NCBI GenBank assembly: GCA_943354745.1 | Contig: CALRDB010000005.1 | Location: 1 to 39,637, forward strand | Length of the DNA stretch: 39,637 bases | Reading direction: 5' to 3' | From: Candidatus Nomurabacteria bacterium | Lineage (GTDB): Bacteria > Patescibacteriota > Minisyncoccia > Phycocordibacterales > UBA10002 | In this document: positions 15,256 through 25,042 of the stretch, piece after piece | How the letters are laid out: each line of letters begins with the position of its first letter | Numbering within the stretch: the stretch's first letter is position 1 | Program-made: the position numbers and the translations under genes | The notes under the pieces: model-generated | Seen by the model: only the letters and a program-made list of their open reading frames with translations | Database searches by the model: none | What the model was told of the DNA's origin: nothing

Positions 15256-16788
15256 ATGCGAAGTCTACAGGAGATATTGACAGTAACACGTTTTCTAACT
15301 GAAGAGAAAAAGTCCTTAATCGAAAAGGCTTACATTTTTGTAGTGGAACTACATAAGGAACAGTTACGGCACTATTCCACCGAATCTATTACGAAACATG
15401 CGACCAGAGTAGCGTTTATTCTTGCCGAGCTTGGAATGCCCACCGAAATGATCATTGCGGGACTACTGCATCATGCAATTCGCGAAGGGTTAGTCTCCAC
15501 ACAGACAATTTCAAAGCAATTTGGAACAACCGTCAGTCTTTTGCTCGAAGGAACGATGAGACTTCGAGATATTCGATACCAAGGTGAAATAAGCCACCTT
15601 GAAAGCCTGCGTAAACTATTTGTCGCATCTGCTAAGGATATGCGCATCCTCGTATTGAAGCTCGCGGATCGCCTTGATACGATGAGATCATTACAGTTCG
15701 CCAAGGAGCACCAGCTTCGAATCGCCCAAGAAACGATGGAAATATACGCGCCACTTGCACGCCGTCTGGGATTACTTCGAATGAGCCGCGAAATGGAAGA
15801 TCTTGCGTTTAAATATATAAGTCCACAGGACTATCAAAGCATCAGTGTGTGGGTAGAGAAGAAACAAAAGGAAGATACGCATCCGTTTGATCAATTCCAC
15901 AAATCACTTCTAAAGCGCTTGGCGAAAGCCGGTGTGCACCAAATTGAAACCGATACACGCTTGAAAGGCATCTACAGCATCTACCAAAAGATAAACCGGA
16001 AGAAGAAGGAACCGGAGCTCATCTATGACCTTCTGGCAATTCGTATGCGAGTAGACACTGTTGAAGACTGCTATCGAAGCCTCGGTGTGATACATACCTC
16101 TTGGCGACCACTTCCGGGGAGGATTAAAGATTATATTGCCTTCCCTAAACCGAATGGGTACCAAAGTCTACACACCACGGTTTTTACAGGACATGGTGGC
16201 ATCATTGAAATCCAAATTCGGACAAAGTCGATGCACGAGGAAGCTGAGTACGGACTAGCATCACATCTTTCCTACAAGGAGCCTGCGAGAAAAAATAATG
16301 TTCCGTATGATTCTTGGCTATACCAATTCTTACCACCTCACAAAATAAACTCAGAAAAAAAATACTCTTTCTCTGCGTTCGAATGGCTACAAAAGATGGT
16401 TCAAGACGAGCATGGCGATGCGAAGGACGCGGACAACTTCACCAGCCTTCGATCGGACTTCTTTCAATATCGGATGTTTATTTTCGATACTCATGGCGAG
16501 GTAGTGGATCTCCCCATACATTCGACTCCTATTGATTTTGCCTACGAAATTGGAGTTACTTCCGGAAATCACCTGTATGGAGCAAAAGTGAACGGAAAAC
16601 TTGTCCACATCGACGCAGAGCTCAAAAACGGTGATATTGTAGAGATAGTTACCAAGCAATCCTCCCACCCAACAGTAAAATGGCTTTTATATGCAAAAAC
16701 AATACTAGCTAAAAAACTCATACAGGAGTACCTCGCATCCAAGACCACGCTTTCGCAAAAAAAGAAAACTAGCCGTTCCGAATCATGA
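15256..16788 (+). CDS. RelA/SpoT homologue 1, HD hydrolase motif degenerate (HH), synthetase and TGS regions present
   Basis: GRIKDYIAFPKPNGYQSLHTTVFTG, EIQIRTKSMHEEAEYGLASH; LLHHAIREG instead of LLHD..ED. Confidence 0.92.
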   Translation: MRSLQEILTVTRFLTEEKKSLIEKAYIFVVELHKEQLRHYSTESITKHATRVAFILAELGMPTEMIIAGLLHHAIREGLVSTQTISKQFGTTVSLLLEGTMRLRDIRYQGEISHLESLRKLFVASAKDMRILVLKLADRLDTMRSLQFAKEHQLRIAQETMEIYAPLARRLGLLRMSREMEDLAFKYISPQDYQSISVWVEKKQKEDTHPFDQFHKSLLKRLAKAGVHQIETDTRLKGIYSIYQKINRKKKEPELIYDLLAIRMRVDTVEDCYRSLGVIHTSWRPLPGRIKDYIAFPKPNGYQSLHTTVFTGHGGIIEIQIRTKSMHEEAEYGLASHLSYKEPARKNNVPYDSWLYQFLPPHKINSEKKYSFSAFEWLQKMVQDEHGDAKDADNFTSLRSDFFQYRMFIFDTHGEVVDLPIHSTPIDFAYEIGVTSGNHLYGAKVNGKLVHIDAELKNGDIVEIVTKQSSHPTVKWLLYAKTILAKKLIQEYLASKTTLSQKKKTSRSES

Positions 16789-18332
16789 CACTTCAGGATA
16801 TAACCAGTTTGATGAAAAATGCTTCGGTCAAGGATACCGCCTTGGTCGAGAAAGCTTACCTATTTGCACAAGATGCGCACAAAAGTCATACGCGCTACTC
16901 GGGTGAGCCTTATTTCTTGCACCTGTTTGAAACAGCGAAGCTCATCGCTGAGCTGGGGGCCGATGCCTCTGCCATTGCTGCGGGATTCCTCCATGACACC
17001 ATCGAAGATGTAAGCGTCAAACCAGAGACAATACAAAAGGAATTCGGAAGCGAAGTCCTGGCACTCGTCGAAGGAGTAACGAAGCTCGGACAGCTTCGTT
17101 ACCGCGGTATCGATCGCTACTCGGAAAGCATGAGACGACTGTTTGTTGCTAGCTCAAAGGATCTTCGTGTACTTATCGTCAAGCTATGCGATCGTCTTCA
17201 TAATATGCGGACACTAAAGCATGTTCCAAAAGAGAAACAAAAACGCATCGCAATGGAAACACTTGAAATTTATGCCCCTATCGCATACCGGCTTGGTATC
17301 AGAAAAATTAACCGAGAACTGGAGGAATTATCGTTTCCTTTTGTCTATCCAGAGGAGCACAAGAAAGTTACCGAAACCCTTAAACGTAAGCACCCTGAGC
17401 TTTCAAAAAAACTTACTAAATTCCACAAGTCCCTATTAAAGGCACTTGTGCGCCAGTCTATTAAAGTTTCTTCGTCAAACCTTCGTCTAAAAAATCTATA
17501 CAGTTTGTACAATAAGCTAAAACACCGAGAGTGGGACTTTGGTAAAATATATGACACGCTTGCCATTCGAGTTATCGTACCAAGTATTGAGGACTGCTAT
17601 CAGTCACTTGGAGTGATCCATGGTCATTGGAGGCCACTACCGGGCCGAATAAAGGACTACATCGCCTTCCCTAAACCAAACGGCTATCGTTCGTTGCATA
17701 CCACCGTATTTACCGGTGACGGAGAAATTATTGAACTGCAGATCCGGACTGAGGAAATGCACAAAGAGTCCGAGTACGGTGTCGCCGCGCACTTTAGCTA
17801 TAAAGAGTCCTCAAGGAAGGAAAAAAATAAGAATAATGACGAGCAACTCTCTCGCATTGGACAACTCTACAAAGGTTTACTCTCCTGGCGCTCTAAAGGG
17901 ACCGGAAATGGAAGCATCTCATTCGAAAGTGATCGGAGTGGCATACCTCGCTGGGTTCAAGATCTTGGTGACTTGAATGCCGGTGCGGAGGAAAAAGAAT
18001 TTTGGGAGCAACTTCGAGGTGACTTTTTTAAAAATCGTATCTTTATTTTCACCCCGAAAGGTGACGTTGTAGACCTTCCGTTTGACTCGAGTCCTATAGA
18101 CTTCGCTTACTCCATTCACTCAGATATTGGAGACCACCTCGTGGGAGCAAAAGTGAATGGAAAGCTTATGCCTATCGACACGGAGCTTAAAAGTGGAGAC
18201 ATCGTTGAAATCCTTACGAAGAAAGGAGGGCGACCAACTGCAAAATGGATTGACATTGTCAAAACATCGGTTGCTAAGAAACATATAAGGGCCAGCCTAC
18301 AAAAACAAGACGAAAAGAAGCCACGACCTTAG
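16785..18332 (+). CDS. RelA/SpoT homologue 2 (bifunctional-type, intact HD)
   Basis: FLHDTIEDVSVK, KLCDRLHNMRTL, GRIKDYIAFPKPNGYRSLHTTVFTGDGEIIELQIRT; ATGA overlap with previous gene. Confidence 0.94.
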   Translation: MTLQDITSLMKNASVKDTALVEKAYLFAQDAHKSHTRYSGEPYFLHLFETAKLIAELGADASAIAAGFLHDTIEDVSVKPETIQKEFGSEVLALVEGVTKLGQLRYRGIDRYSESMRRLFVASSKDLRVLIVKLCDRLHNMRTLKHVPKEKQKRIAMETLEIYAPIAYRLGIRKINRELEELSFPFVYPEEHKKVTETLKRKHPELSKKLTKFHKSLLKALVRQSIKVSSSNLRLKNLYSLYNKLKHREWDFGKIYDTLAIRVIVPSIEDCYQSLGVIHGHWRPLPGRIKDYIAFPKPNGYRSLHTTVFTGDGEIIELQIRTEEMHKESEYGVAAHFSYKESSRKEKNKNNDEQLSRIGQLYKGLLSWRSKGTGNGSISFESDRSGIPRWVQDLGDLNAGAEEKEFWEQLRGDFFKNRIFIFTPKGDVVDLPFDSSPIDFAYSIHSDIGDHLVGAKVNGKLMPIDTELKSGDIVEILTKKGGRPTAKWIDIVKTSVAKKHIRASLQKQDEKKPRP

Positions 18333-18353: not shown

Positions 18354-19385
18354 CTATAGTGAAAAGTTTTTAACGGAATAGAGATCTTCCGTGTTTTCTT
18401 CGATGACTTTTTCTTGGGGAGTTCGATCATCGAGTGCCTCTGGGACAGACTCAACAGACACAGCGGCAAGCTCTTGTCCTTCGGCTACTTTTCCCTCGAT
18501 TGCCTTTGCCTCAACAGAAGCAATGTGTCGATCAAGCATTTCGCTTGAACTCTTAGCTTTATTCGTCTCCATAAGTTGCAACAAAGTACGAAGATCGTCG
18601 TTAGAGAAAAAATCAATAAGTATTTTACCGCCAGCCTCAGAACGTTCGATTTTCACTCGAGTACCAAGCTGTTCGCGTAGCTTCTCTTCAAGAGCGTTGA
18701 GCTCAGGATCAATCACTAGATCTTTTTTTCTAGCACGATCATAAGCGATTCGTCTTGCGATATTTTCCGCCTCTCGAACGGTCACCTTCTTATACATGAT
18801 CTCTTTAAACAAGGTTAATTGTTCTTGAGGACGACCAGAAAGCATAAGGAGGGGTCTTGTGTGACCTTCGGATATTTTCCCCTGCGAAACGGCCGCCAGA
18901 ATCTCGTCGGAAAGATCGAGAATGCGAAGCGTATTGGATACATATTCGCGACTTTTTCCAACCTTTTTCCCGATTTCAGCGTGCTTCATGCCGAACTCTT
19001 GCGCGAGACGTTGAAACGCACGTGCTCGGTCCACGGAATTGATATCCTCTCGTTGTAAATTTTCAATAATCGCCAGTTCGAGCTTCTCACGATCGCTCTC
19101 TTCGCCTTGTCGGATCAGTACCGGGACCTGCGAAAGACCTGCAAGACGCGAGGCACGCAAACGACGCTCGCCGGAAATGAGCTCATACTCCGTAGCAAGA
19201 CCACCATCTTCCTTTTTAATCTCCCTTCTCGTTACCACGAGTGGTTGAAGAATTCCGTACATACGAATCGACTCAGCGAGCTCAGAAAGCTTCGCCTCAT
19301 CAAATTCACGCCGTGGCTGATATGGGTTCGGTTTTATTTTTTCGACCTCCACCCAAAACACTGCATTGTTAACAAACTGTGGCAT
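18354..19385 (-). CDS. parB: ParB/Spo0J chromosome partitioning protein
   Basis: IKPNPYQPRREFDEAKLSELAESIRMYGILQPLVV, YELISGERRLRASRLAGL. Confidence 0.95.
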   Translation of the reverse strand: MPQFVNNAVFWVEVEKIKPNPYQPRREFDEAKLSELAESIRMYGILQPLVVTRREIKKEDGGLATEYELISGERRLRASRLAGLSQVPVLIRQGEESDREKLELAIIENLQREDINSVDRARAFQRLAQEFGMKHAEIGKKVGKSREYVSNTLRILDLSDEILAAVSQGKISEGHTRPLLMLSGRPQEQLTLFKEIMYKKVTVREAENIARRIAYDRARKKDLVIDPELNALEEKLREQLGTRVKIERSEAGGKILIDFFSNDDLRTLLQLMETNKAKSSSEMLDRHIASVEAKAIEGKVAEGQELAAVSVESVPEALDDRTPQEKVIEENTEDLYSVKNFSL

Positions 19386-19422: not shown

Positions 19423-19480
19423 TGTCATTCCTGCGTAAGCAGGAATCCAGTCTTTCCTCCTCCCCTCTTTAGAGGGGAGG
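19423..19480. repeat. Composite intergenic repeat: GTCATTCC..GGAATCCAG hairpin plus CCTCCCCTCTTTAGAGGGGAGG palindrome
   Basis: Direct reading of two adjacent inverted repeats. Confidence 0.85.
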
Positions 19481-19625
19481 ATTGAGGTGGGGTGGTGTTA
19501 TTTTTACTCCTCCAATTGTACCACATGCACAATCAATGCAAAATTAAATTGCTGTGAACAGTTTTATTGCCTGCCCGTTGCACTCGGCTTGAAGCAGAGT
19601 GCTTTTCGGGGTAAAGTATCAAGGC

Positions 19626-19860
19626 GCCGGGATGGCGGAATTAGCAGACGCACGGGACTCCCGCCCGCCTTGACTTCGCCGATTGAAAACAATATATGCT
19701 GGGGTGGCGGAATTGGCAGACGCACAGGACTCAAAATCCTGCGATGGCAACATCATGAGGGTTCGATGCCCTCCCCCAGCACCACACTCGTCAAGGCGAA
19801 GTCGGGCAGGCAAAATCCCGCGATGGCAACATCATGAGAGTGCAAGTCTCTCTCCCGGCA
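19626..19860 (+). other. Interrupted tRNA-Leu(CAA)-like gene: 5' half 19626-19659, 151-bp insert 19660-19810, 3' half 19811-19860
   Basis: Joined halves give an 84-nt tRNA with paired acceptor GCCGGGA/TCCCGGC, anticodon stem CGGGA/TCCCG, T-stem GAGAG/CTCTC; loops altered (18G to A, 55T to G). Confidence 0.75.
19698..19784 (+). tRNA. tRNA-Leu (anticodon CAA), CCA encoded
   Basis: Acceptor GCTGGGG/CCCCAGC, anticodon loop CTCAAAA, T-loop TTCGATG, A-CCA. Confidence 0.94.
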
Positions 19861-19931
19861 CCGCTTTCCTTTCCCCTCTCCCCCTTTCTAAGGGGGAGAT
19901 TAAGAGGGGGTTGGCATTCTCTTCAGAAATT

Positions 19932-22316
19932 TTATAATTTTCTCACAACTCCCTTATCCGCATCCACCTCTACCATATCTCCGTCTTTCAGAACTTTGGT
20001 GGCAATCTTGGTGCCGATGATGCAGGGCTTTTTGAGTTCGCGGGCAGTAATCGCGGCGTGGGAAGTAATACCCCCTTCGTCTGTCACAATCGCACTCGCC
20101 TTTGAAAAAAGAGGAAGAAAAGAAAGATTTGTTGTCGTTGCGATAAGAATATCTCCTTCGTTGAAATTCTCAGCATCGGTCCTTATATTTAAAATGACCT
20201 TCGCAGTTCCACGAACAAGACCTGGGAAAGCCACTATTCCTTTGATTTTAGTGTCAGCAATGGTCGCATCCGCCTTTTTGATATGTTTAACGTCAAAATC
20301 ATAATCGACAACGCCTGCATGGGAGAAAACTTTAGAATAGACCCGCCGCGAAGCCAGTGTAACCTGAGAAGGAAGCGGAGTTTCTTTTTGCAGAAAATCC
20401 AACAACTCTTGACGCATACAGTACACTACCTCACCGATGGTCCGCCCTGCCCTCTGTCCTATTTCCATATACAGATGTCTTGCGAAAAAATAGCTTTTTT
20501 GCCGAATATCGTTTCGATACTCGCGCAAAAACGCGACTTGCTCTATCGCTTCCACAATATGTCGTACGTCCTCCGATAAATGGACTTTAGTTTCAAGTAC
20601 CTGAGCCAATTTCTCGGGCTTATATGCCCTATTTTCCTCCCGTAACTGCTTATACATATTTTCAAAGTGAGTATACGAAAGAGGCTCCTCATCCATGTTA
20701 AGAATGGAAAAATACGAAAACTCCTGAGTTATGGCTTCAAGACAAGCCTTAAAATTTTCATCATTCGCCGACAAATTACGCAGTCTTTCCTGAAGAAGTC
20801 TTGTTGCGGTCTTTTGTTTTGGAATAAGCGCGGAATTAAGAATCTCCGCAAAAGACGGACCCTGTTCTCTTTTTAATTTTTCTACTTCACTCGTCAGGGC
20901 TTCATCAAGAATAAAGATAAGCCAGATATAGTGCATCCAGTGGTCTTCTTGCTCTATAAAAGCCTGTAGCACGTCTGACAGCTTATTGTCCGTCATTTTC
21001 GAAAAGTCGGTACTACCTAGCTTTTGGGAAGTACGGAGAAAAGATTCAAATACTTTCTCGCCCATTCCAAAGAGTTTTTGGAATCCCGTTTTCTTAATTG
21101 TTTCAATCAGGACATTCTGACACTCAAAAAGCTGCGTTTCATCAACAAAACCTGCTCCCATTGAATCTCTCAGTTCAATAATCTGGTCGGGAAAGGAAAC
21201 ACCGAACAGCTCTTCAAATTTGAAACTTCCATAACACCAATTTTCTGCAAGACGAACGGAATGCCCTTTTGACCAAATCTTTTTCCAAACCTGTCCAGTT
21301 ACAACCCTCTTTGAAAGTGTCGTAATCGGTCGGCTTTGGAGAATATAGAACTTGCCTTTGGCCAGTGCCCACTCGATGTCGCAAGGAAAGCCATAATGTT
21401 TTTCAATTTTAAGGATGAGTTCCGAAAGCTCTAGGATTTGTTCGTCTGAGAGTTTTTGTTCTGACATTTTCTTTTCGGGAACATCCTGCCACTCATTTCG
21501 CTCTTGAATTCCTTCTTTCTGAAATCCCTCTCCGCCGAAGACGGCGGTACTCCCTTTTACAAAGGGAGAATAGGAAGAGCGGACTAACTGCTTGCTCTGC
21601 TCGGAGATATTTTTATCAAGTATGTGGTGAGGCTGTTTTTCCACCACATACGAATCTGGGGTAATTTGTCCGGACACTATTGCCTCGCCAAGTCCGAAGC
21701 CAGCCTCGATGATCAGCTGATTGTGATCTTCAGTGACGGGGTGCACCGAAAAGGCGATACCGGACACTTCACTCTCCACCATTTTCTGTACCACGACAGC
21801 TACACCTATTTTGAGGTCATGTAATCCTTTTTCAAGGCGATAGAAGATTGCGCGTGGCGTAAAAAGCGACGCCCAACATTTCTGTACGTTCTTGAGTAAA
21901 TCTCTCTCAGTCGTATTGAGGAAACTATCAAGCTGTCCCGCCCATGCCGCGCTTGCCGAATCTTCTGCCGTGGCGGAGGAGCGCACAGCTACATATTTCG
22001 CGCCAAGTTTCTTAAACTCCCTTTTTATTTCAATTGCAATATCTTCCGGCATTGCCTCCGAAAGGATGAGGGCCTGTATTTCTTCCGAAGCGTTCTCTAC
22101 CGTGTGCATTTCCTTGTGATTCACTTTATGTAAAAGGGCATCAATCTCCACATTCAAATCCGATTCCTTTAAAAATCGTTCGAAGGAAGGAGTAAGTACG
22201 ACAAAACCGTCCGGTACGGAAATCCCTACCCCAGTCATTTCCCCGAGCGAGGATCCCTTGCCACCCGTAACAGAAACATCACTCTTAGAGATATCCTTGA
22301 ATGGTCTAACAAACAT
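19932..22316 (-). CDS. PEP-synthase/rifampin-phosphotransferase-like dikinase
   Basis: N-terminal PPDK_N-type GGKGSSLGEM, EVSGIAFSVHPVTEDHNQLIIEA; C-terminal swivelling domain TDEGGITSHAAITARELKKPCIIGT at the very C-terminus, no TIM barrel after it. Confidence 0.85.
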   Translation of the reverse strand: MFVRPFKDISKSDVSVTGGKGSSLGEMTGVGISVPDGFVVLTPSFERFLKESDLNVEIDALLHKVNHKEMHTVENASEEIQALILSEAMPEDIAIEIKREFKKLGAKYVAVRSSATAEDSASAAWAGQLDSFLNTTERDLLKNVQKCWASLFTPRAIFYRLEKGLHDLKIGVAVVVQKMVESEVSGIAFSVHPVTEDHNQLIIEAGFGLGEAIVSGQITPDSYVVEKQPHHILDKNISEQSKQLVRSSYSPFVKGSTAVFGGEGFQKEGIQERNEWQDVPEKKMSEQKLSDEQILELSELILKIEKHYGFPCDIEWALAKGKFYILQSRPITTLSKRVVTGQVWKKIWSKGHSVRLAENWCYGSFKFEELFGVSFPDQIIELRDSMGAGFVDETQLFECQNVLIETIKKTGFQKLFGMGEKVFESFLRTSQKLGSTDFSKMTDNKLSDVLQAFIEQEDHWMHYIWLIFILDEALTSEVEKLKREQGPSFAEILNSALIPKQKTATRLLQERLRNLSANDENFKACLEAITQEFSYFSILNMDEEPLSYTHFENMYKQLREENRAYKPEKLAQVLETKVHLSEDVRHIVEAIEQVAFLREYRNDIRQKSYFFARHLYMEIGQRAGRTIGEVVYCMRQELLDFLQKETPLPSQVTLASRRVYSKVFSHAGVVDYDFDVKHIKKADATIADTKIKGIVAFPGLVRGTAKVILNIRTDAENFNEGDILIATTTNLSFLPLFSKASAIVTDEGGITSHAAITARELKKPCIIGTKIATKVLKDGDMVEVDADKGVVRKL

Positions 22317-24127: not shown

Positions 24128-25042
24128 ATGGGACCCATAACAAAAAAGCAAATCAGTATAGCCATTGTCGGTCCGACAGCGGTAGGGAAAAGCTCGCTTG
24201 CCATAGCCCTCGCTAGGAAATATAACGGCGAGATTATTTCTGCTGATTCAAGGCAAGTGTATAAAGGGCTCGATATCGGGACAGGAAAAGTGACTAAAAA
24301 AGAAATGTCGGGAGTCCCCCACCATATGCTTGATATCGTAAGTCCGAAAAAACAGTATTCTGTGGCCGAGTTTCAAAAAATAGGAAGAGAGAAAATAACG
24401 GACATTTTTTCCCGCGGGAAATTGCCAATTATCTGCGGAGGAACGGGGCTTTACGTAGATTCCCTTCTTAAAAATAGTCAGTTCCCGCAGGTCACACCAA
24501 ACGAAGAACTTCGGGCCCGCTTGGAAGAAAAGACGACCGCCGAACTTTTTCAGATAGTGAAGGGCCTTGACCCGAGGCGAGCTGAGACGATAGACCCGCA
24601 TAACCCTCGTCGGCTTGTCCGTGCGATTGAAATCGCCACGGCACTCGGCAGTGTTCCGAACGTACAACTAACAACTAGCAACTCACGACAAAGGGTTCTG
24701 TGGATTGGGCTAACGCTTCCGCCTGAGGAGCTAAAAAAAAGAATAGCCGACCGGCTTGAAACACGCTTGAAGACCGGAATGATACAAGAAGCAAAAAAAC
24801 TTCACACACTGGGTTTGTCATGGAAACGTATGGAGGAGCTCGGCCTAGAGTATCGGTATCTTGCCCGTTTTCTACAAGGCAACATAACAAAAGAGGAAAT
24901 GATTACTTCACTTCAGTCCGAAATTTGGCACTACGCCAAACGCCAGATGACCTGGTTTAGGCGGAATGAGGAAATTACGTGGTTTACTCCGCATAACGCC
25001 TTACAAATTATGACCACAGTTGGGAATTTTCTACGGGCATAG
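24128..25042 (+). CDS. miaA: tRNA dimethylallyltransferase
   Basis: IVGPTAVGKSSLAIALARKYNGEIISADSRQVYKGLDIGTGK, GGTGLYVDSLL. Confidence 0.96.
   Translation: MGPITKKQISIAIVGPTAVGKSSLAIALARKYNGEIISADSRQVYKGLDIGTGKVTKKEMSGVPHHMLDIVSPKKQYSVAEFQKIGREKITDIFSRGKLPIICGGTGLYVDSLLKNSQFPQVTPNEELRARLEEKTTAELFQIVKGLDPRRAETIDPHNPRRLVRAIEIATALGSVPNVQLTTSNSRQRVLWIGLTLPPEELKKRIADRLETRLKTGMIQEAKKLHTLGLSWKRMEELGLEYRYLARFLQGNITKEEMITSLQSEIWHYAKRQMTWFRRNEEITWFTPHNALQIMTTVGNFLRA

What the first reader, a model, noticed from the sequence alone, without database searches (positions are those of the whole stretch)
19626..19860. A complete tRNA-Leu(CAA) nested inside a split tRNA-Leu-like gene
An outer tRNA-Leu-like gene is interrupted in its anticodon loop (GGGACT ^ CAAAATCCC) by 151 bp that contains an intact tRNA-Leu(CAA). 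Removing the insert gives exactly 84 nt, the same length as the inner tRNA without CCA. Relative to the inner tRNA, the outer has compensatory changes in the acceptor (GCTGGGG/CCCCAGC to GCCGGGA/TCCCGGC), anticodon stem (CAGGA/TCCTG to CGGGA/TCCCG) and T-stem (GAGGG/CCCTC to GAGAG/CTCTC). Both partners of the 18-55 tertiary contact are altered (G18 to A, T55 to G). Insert ends can pair (CGCCTTGAC with GTCAAGGCG). Paired-stem conservation argues against a simple pseudogene.
Basis: partly seen in the sequence, partly recalled or inferred. Interest (0 to 1): 0.82.

Follow-up and report, generated by a model that had tools for sequence, protein, structure and literature searches.

The report
Replacement tRNA nested in displaced tRNA
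In this small-genome bacterium a leucine tRNA gene has been broken open by a short palindromic DNA insert that carries a second, intact copy of the same tRNA, so we are probably seeing one tRNA gene being replaced by another, not a new kind of RNA splicing.

Summary
A tRNA-Leu(CAA) (19626-19659 + 19811-19860) is split in its anticodon loop by 151 bp holding an intact, CCA-encoding tRNA-Leu(CAA) (19698-19784), the only intact copy found in the genome. A same-genus genome (G004) carries the uninterrupted outer gene at the same parB-miaA site, 83/84 nt identical, so the outer gene is the disrupted resident gene. The "altered 18-55 contact" is a natural variant: A18 and G55 covary in this order's tRNAs (6/6 against 1/101). 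The insert's ends form a palindrome of a dispersed family (CCCG...CGGGCAGGCA; 30 copies in the genus, control 3), with the inner tRNA in its loop. Four other species show related debris at this tRNA: a second tRNA-Leu(CAA), a palindrome, and a displaced 3' piece. Associated tRNAs encode CCA (5/5); resident ones do not (0/9). There is no group I intron core, integrase or RtcB ligase, so joining of the outer halves is unlikely. Best reading: recent insertion of a palindrome-bounded replacement tRNA, with the outer gene freshly inactivated. How the tRNA got into the palindrome is not shown, and misassembly cannot be excluded without reads.

The parts
19626..19659 (+). 5' half of the resident (outer) tRNA-Leu(CAA)
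   Evidence: Identical over 35 nt (19626-19660) to the uninterrupted gene in G004
19660..19810 (+). 151-bp insert in the anticodon loop (GGGACT^CAAAATCCC; the C at the junction is ambiguous by 1 nt)
   Evidence: Empty site in G004
19660..19681 (+). Left arm of the palindrome (CCCGCCCGCCTTGACTTCGCCG)
   Evidence: Pairs with 19790-19810; family motif CCCG...CGGGCAGGCA
19698..19784 (+). Intact inner tRNA-Leu(CAA) with encoded CCA (19782-19784)
   Evidence: ARAGORN, Rfam 53.8 bits; 84/84 to the G012 tRNA
19790..19810 (+). Right arm of the palindrome (GTCAAGGCGAAGTCGGGCAGG)
   Evidence: Shared, next to CAAAATCC, with G001 (43-nt exact match 19789-19831) and in two pieces with G002
19811..19860 (+). 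3' half of the resident (outer) tRNA-Leu(CAA)
   Evidence: One difference from G004
19570..19611 (-). Second palindrome of the same family, inverted, inserted in the promoter spacer of the outer tRNA
   Evidence: Pattern match (L332); relatives have an unbroken 17-nt spacer
19589..19617 (+). Putative rebuilt promoter TTGAAG-17-TAAAGT, 8 nt before the outer tRNA; the only well-spaced promoter I see upstream of the inner tRNA
   Evidence: Inference from alignment with relatives; the -35 lies in the palindrome; not picked up by the consensus scan
18354..19385 (-). parB, conserved left neighbour of tRNA-Leu(CAA)
   Evidence: Pfam; synteny
24128..25042 (+). miaA (IPP transferase), the next gene to the right in most relatives; displaced here by about 4 kb
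   Evidence: Pfam

Best explanation
The outer gene is the resident tRNA-Leu(CAA) of the parB-miaA site. A palindromic repeat element of a dispersed family broke it in the anticodon loop, and the loop of that palindrome holds a different, CCA-encoding tRNA-Leu(CAA) allele that now does the job. Shown: the empty site, the family membership of the insert ends, the inner tRNA being the only intact Leu(CAA) found, and recurrent debris of the same kind in relatives. Inferred: the inner tRNA is cut by RNase P and 3' nucleases from a transcript started at the outer gene's promoter; the outer halves are by-products; the break is recent; direct repeats of the two tRNAs later let the nest collapse into a single tRNA plus a displaced 3' piece, as seen in G001, G002 and G010. 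The nest is therefore a snapshot of tRNA gene replacement. Not known: whether the tRNA moved in as cargo of the palindrome or entered it afterwards by recombination.
For: G004 carries the uninterrupted outer allele at the same place, 83/84 identical, although fourfold-site identity of parB is only 0.30 (saturated), so the outer gene was under selection until recently. The insert arms fit a dispersed palindrome family (30 copies vs 3 control), and a second copy ends 14 bp upstream of the outer tRNA. The GGCAGG^CAAAATCC junction occurs only in G000, G001, G002 and G009 among 13 genus genomes, always at this tRNA. It was not found at a tRNA-Leu in about 385 other genomes of the order. The site carries many different Leu(CAA) alleles between species. 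Inserted ones encode CCA 5/5, resident ones 0/9 (p = 0.0005, not corrected for relatedness). G010 has a chimeric tRNA with a mismatched acceptor stem (GCCGGGA/CTCGCCC), which is what collapse between repeats predicts. Y1 (PF01797) transposases are present in 12/13 genomes, four in the window's.
Against: This insertion has no target-site duplication, whereas 6 of 25 dispersed copies have a 7-bp one. The palindrome stems at this tRNA differ between species. The displaced 3' piece in G002 comes from a different allele, so several events, not one, are needed. No mobile gene lies in the insert or next to it. The cargo step is unproven.
Confidence: 0.72

Rival explanations
1. The outer gene is still used: the insert is a bacterial tRNA intron that itself contains a tRNA, and the outer halves are joined after its removal.
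For: Outer halves 83/84 identical to a functional gene with all stems intact; the insert ends pair and bring the halves together; the 5' piece ends in U and the insert ends in G, as in group I introns.
Against: No group I or II core; only 64 nt of insert outside the tRNA; no RtcB in 13 genomes with the control search positive; position 33/34 is not the archaeal 37/38 site; in relatives the outer pieces decay or are truncated. A recent insertion explains the intact halves.
Confidence: 0.03
2. Remnant of one or two integrase-borne islands that inserted at the anticodon loop, restored a tRNA, and lost their cargo by deletion.
For: Intact tRNA plus displaced 3' fragment is the classic island signature (PMC4383910), and the anticodon loop is a classic crossover site (PMC8371274). 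G001, G002 and G010 fit it better than the window does.
Against: Both a 5' and a 3' fragment flank an intact tRNA. The 7-bp loop is not duplicated at the two junctions (only CTC on the left, CAAAA on the right). No integrase recognised among the neighbouring genes examined. No match in phages or viral contigs beyond the tRNA itself.
Confidence: 0.15
3. Assembly artefact: two related tRNA-Leu loci from co-occurring species fused in the metagenome assembly.
For: The genome is a 44-contig draft with 2% estimated contamination; the inner tRNA is identical to that of G012.
Against: The right junction recurs in separate assemblies G001 and G002; the two insert arms are complementary to each other; both halves of the outer gene match one allele.
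Confidence: 0.08

Closest known systems
Genomic islands integrated in tRNA genes (Islander, PMC4383910; Williams 2002 as cited in PMC8371274)
   Same: A tRNA gene is interrupted, the incoming DNA supplies a replacement, and a displaced fragment is left behind.
   Different: 151 bp instead of kilobases, no integrase, a whole replacement tRNA instead of a restored half, fragments on both sides, no duplicated core.
REP and similar extragenic palindromes (GTAG/CGTC families, RAYT-mobilised; PMC3733652)
   Same: Short dispersed palindromes with a one-sided conserved tail, in genomes with Y1 transposases.
   Different: Tail is CCTG/GGCAGGCA, not GTAG or CGTC; very low copy; here the palindrome encloses a tRNA and sits inside a tRNA gene.
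Group I introns in bacterial tRNA anticodon loops (from general knowledge)
   Same: Same place in the gene; U before and G at the end of the insert.
   Different: No catalytic core; contains a tRNA.
Archaeal tRNA introns with bulge-helix-bulge motif (PMC4090602, abstract only)
   Same: Interrupted tRNA with pairing ends.
   Different: Wrong position, bacterial host, no RtcB; the splicing endonuclease was not searched for.

Membership tests
Group I intron | Catalytic core recognised by Rfam models | tested here: not met
   No intron match in the window at gathering score or in L001 at relaxed E-value
Group I intron | U before the 5' splice site and G at the intron end | tested here: met
   GGGACU^...GG^CAAAA in the sequence; weak, can be chance
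Archaeal-type tRNA intron | RtcB-type ligase in the genome | tested here: not met
   PF01139 0/13 genomes, 9/14 control genomes positive
Archaeal-type tRNA intron | Canonical 37/38 position | tested here: not met
   Insert lies at 33/34 or 34/35
Archaeal-type tRNA intron | tRNA splicing endonuclease | not tested
tRNA-integrated genomic island | Intact tRNA plus displaced fragment of the same tRNA | tested here: met
tRNA-integrated genomic island | Integrase gene in the element | tested here: not met
   A 151-bp insert cannot hold one; none recognised among neighbouring genes examined
tRNA-integrated genomic island | Core/identity block duplicated at both ends | tested here: not met
   Left junction keeps only CTC, right only CAAAA (sequence)
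Genus palindrome family (CCCG...CGGGCAGGCA) | Ends fit the dispersed family motif | tested here: met
   CCCGCC left and CGGGCAGGCA right; 30 copies vs 3 control. The whole insert is longer than the 10-40 nt gap of the pattern because it encloses the tRNA
Genus palindrome family (CCCG...CGGGCAGGCA) | 7-bp target-site duplication starting CA | tested here: not met
   Left GGGACTC vs right CAAAATC; only 6 of 25 dispersed copies have one, so it is not universal
RAYT-mobilised REP (GTAG/CGTC superfamilies) | GTAG or CGTC tetranucleotide tag | tested here: not met
   Conserved tail reads CCTG/CAGG
RAYT-mobilised REP (GTAG/CGTC superfamilies) | Y1 transposase linked to the repeats | tested here: inconclusive
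   PF01797 present in 12/13 genomes, linkage to repeats not examined
tRNA pseudogene (long dead) | Random decay of stems | tested here: not met
   83/84 identical to G004, all stems paired

The most novel reading that the evidence does not exclude
Palindrome plus CCA-encoding tRNA-Leu(CAA) is a minimal mobile unit that repeatedly lands in the anticodon loop of the resident tRNA-Leu(CAA) and replaces it: a self-complementing, protein-free tRNA-swapping element spreading through this genus with a transposase supplied in trans.
Probability: 0.2. Interest if true: 0.65.

Novelty: new variant of a known kind. Interest (0 to 1): 0.42.

Why it matters
tRNA genes are known to be displaced by large integrase-driven islands. 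Here the same outcome, a resident tRNA broken and a homologous one supplied, appears at a scale of 151 bp with palindromic repeats at the junctions, caught before the old gene has decayed. The parB-miaA site shows many different Leu(CAA) alleles in one genus, so it can be used to study how essential-looking RNA genes are exchanged between minimal genomes. It also warns that intact stems in a split tRNA do not prove splicing, and that A18/G55 is a normal alternative in this group.

Tried and rejected
Group I/II intron: no Rfam hit. Splicing with RtcB: gene absent. Phage or plasmid origin of the insert: only the tRNA part matches. Integrase island: no duplicated core, no integrase gene recognised nearby. 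Decay reading of A18/G55: rejected by covariation in other tRNAs. A genome-contig scan with a 17-letter pattern was too unspecific to use. Literature searches for a nested tRNA found none; that is absence from one open-access library, not proof.

Full report
WHAT IS THERE. The window is a whole contig (C5, 39,637 bp) of a 0.92-Mb, 44-contig draft genome. From genome size and gene content it looks like a Patescibacteria-type organism; this is inference, not tested. Between parB (18354-19385, minus) and a PEP-synthase-like gene lies a tRNA-Leu(CAA) split at its anticodon loop: 19626-19659 and 19811-19860. The 151-bp insert holds an intact tRNA-Leu(CAA), 19698-19781 plus encoded CCA 19782-19784. 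Joined, the outer halves give an 84-nt tRNA-Leu(CAA) with every stem paired. The inner one is the only intact Leu(CAA) found in the genome.

THE OUTER GENE IS THE RESIDENT ONE. In the genus (13 genomes held) tRNA-Leu(CAA) sits between parB and miaA. G004 carries at that place an uninterrupted gene that differs from the joined outer halves at one of 84 positions, including A18 and G55. G012 carries, also uninterrupted, an allele identical to the inner tRNA over 84 nt. Fourfold sites of parB are saturated between these species (identity 0.30 for G004, 0.34 for G002, the sister in the ParB tree). An unselected outer gene would therefore not stay 83/84 identical for long. Either the break is recent or the gene is still used.

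A18/G55 IS NOT DAMAGE. Among 107 distinct tRNAs in the fetched loci, all six with G55 have A18 (Cys twice, Thr(CGT), Leu(CAA), Met, Ala), against 1 of 101 others (Fisher p about 4e-9, not corrected for relatedness). The window genome's own Thr(CGT) has it. It is a covarying alternative of the 18-55 contact.

THE INSERT ENDS ARE A DISPERSED PALINDROME. The arms CCCGCCCGCCTTGACTTCGCCG and GTCAAGGCGAAGTCGGGCAGG pair and fit the form CCCG-hairpin-CGGGCAGGCA. This form occurs 30 times in the 13 genomes against 3 for the reversed control. Of 25 copies with resolved ends, 6 have a near-perfect 7-bp duplication starting with CA, against 0.6 expected by shuffling; some of these lie in simple repeats, so this is only suggestive. 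The anticodon-loop insertion has no such duplication. A second, inverted copy (19570-19611) sits in the promoter spacer of the outer tRNA. Relatives have an unbroken 17-nt spacer there. The copy brings a TTGAAG at 17 nt from TAAAGT, so the promoter may have been rebuilt (inference; the consensus scan did not list it).

RELATIVES SHOW THE SAME KIND OF EVENT. The junction GGCAGG^CAAAATCC is found in G000, G001, G002 and G009 only, always at this tRNA, and not at a tRNA-Leu in about 385 other genomes of the order. G001 and G002 have an intact tRNA, then a structured stretch, then a tRNA 3' end with CCA, then the palindrome arm and a displaced 3' piece of a tRNA-Leu. G001 shares a 43-nt exact match with the window (19789-19831) and G002 a 38-nt one (19762-19799). 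G009 has a degraded 5' piece, a new CCA-encoding tRNA, a different palindrome and a decayed 3' piece. G010 has a chimeric tRNA whose acceptor strands do not match, two palindromes and a 3' piece. Inserted tRNAs or their 3' ends encode CCA in 5 of 5 cases; resident uninterrupted or outer ones in 0 of 9.

MECHANISM. I conclude that the resident gene was broken by a palindromic element and that a second Leu(CAA) allele, sitting in the palindrome's loop, took over. Expression of the inner tRNA probably relies on read-through from the outer promoter and normal 5' and 3' tRNA processing (inferred). The 5' halves (31/35 identical, 72 bp apart) and 3' halves (83%, 79 bp apart) are direct repeats; slippage between them would give the G001/G002/G010 arrangement and the G010 chimera (inferred). 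Whether the tRNA travelled inside the palindrome or recombined into it later cannot be decided. That both tRNAs have the same identity points to homology or selection at some step, not random landing.

SPLICING IS UNLIKELY. No intron family matches. Only 64 nt of the insert lie outside the tRNA. No RtcB was found in 13 genomes although the control search works. The outer pieces in relatives are degraded or truncated. I give it 3%.

KNOWN KINDS. The outcome resembles tRNA-targeted islands (PMC4383910, PMC8371274), but size, missing integrase, missing core duplication and the two-sided fragments speak against membership. The palindromes resemble REPs (PMC3733652) but lack the GTAG/CGTC tag, so I do not file them there. 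I found no report of a tRNA nested in a tRNA in the library searched.

LIMITS. One draft assembly without reads; only 13 genus genomes; relatedness not corrected in the counts; the parB and miaA trees are poorly resolved and miaA has moved in the window genome. The number of independent insertions is unknown.

Noticed in passing
L042 about 408-563, L043 about 816-973, L046 (minus strand) about 577-727: About 130-nt structured stretch between tRNA-Leu(CAA) and a duplicated tRNA 3' end in three species; three base pairs change on both sides, no Rfam match, no viral match. Possibly a small RNA or a tiny element at the tRNA 3' end.
   Followed up: partly
tRNAs across the fetched loci, e.g. Thr(CGT) and the outer Leu(CAA) of the window genome: A18 and G55 covary: 6/6 tRNAs with G55 have A18, 1/101 otherwise.
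   Followed up: yes
L322-L351 (13 genus genomes): Dispersed palindrome family CCCGCC...CGGGCAGG with a 7-bp duplication starting CA in 6 of 25 copies.
   Followed up: partly
window 19427-19450, 19461-19495, 19868-19914: Other palindromic repeat types crowd the same intergenic region; the last matches several sites in this and related genomes.
   Followed up: no
L259 1216-1297 (minus): G005 carries a very different tRNA-Leu(CAA) (GCCGGAGTGATGAAATTGGTAACC...) at the same parB-miaA site although its ParB is among the closest to the window's; suggests whole-gene replacement of the tRNA.
   Followed up: no
window 15256-16788 and 16785-18332: Two adjacent RelA/SpoT-type genes, overlapping by 4 bp.
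   Followed up: no
window 19911-19938: Near-consensus sigma-70 promoter TTGGCA-16-TATAAT on the plus strand, pointing into the 3' end of the minus-strand PEP-synthase-like gene.
   Followed up: no
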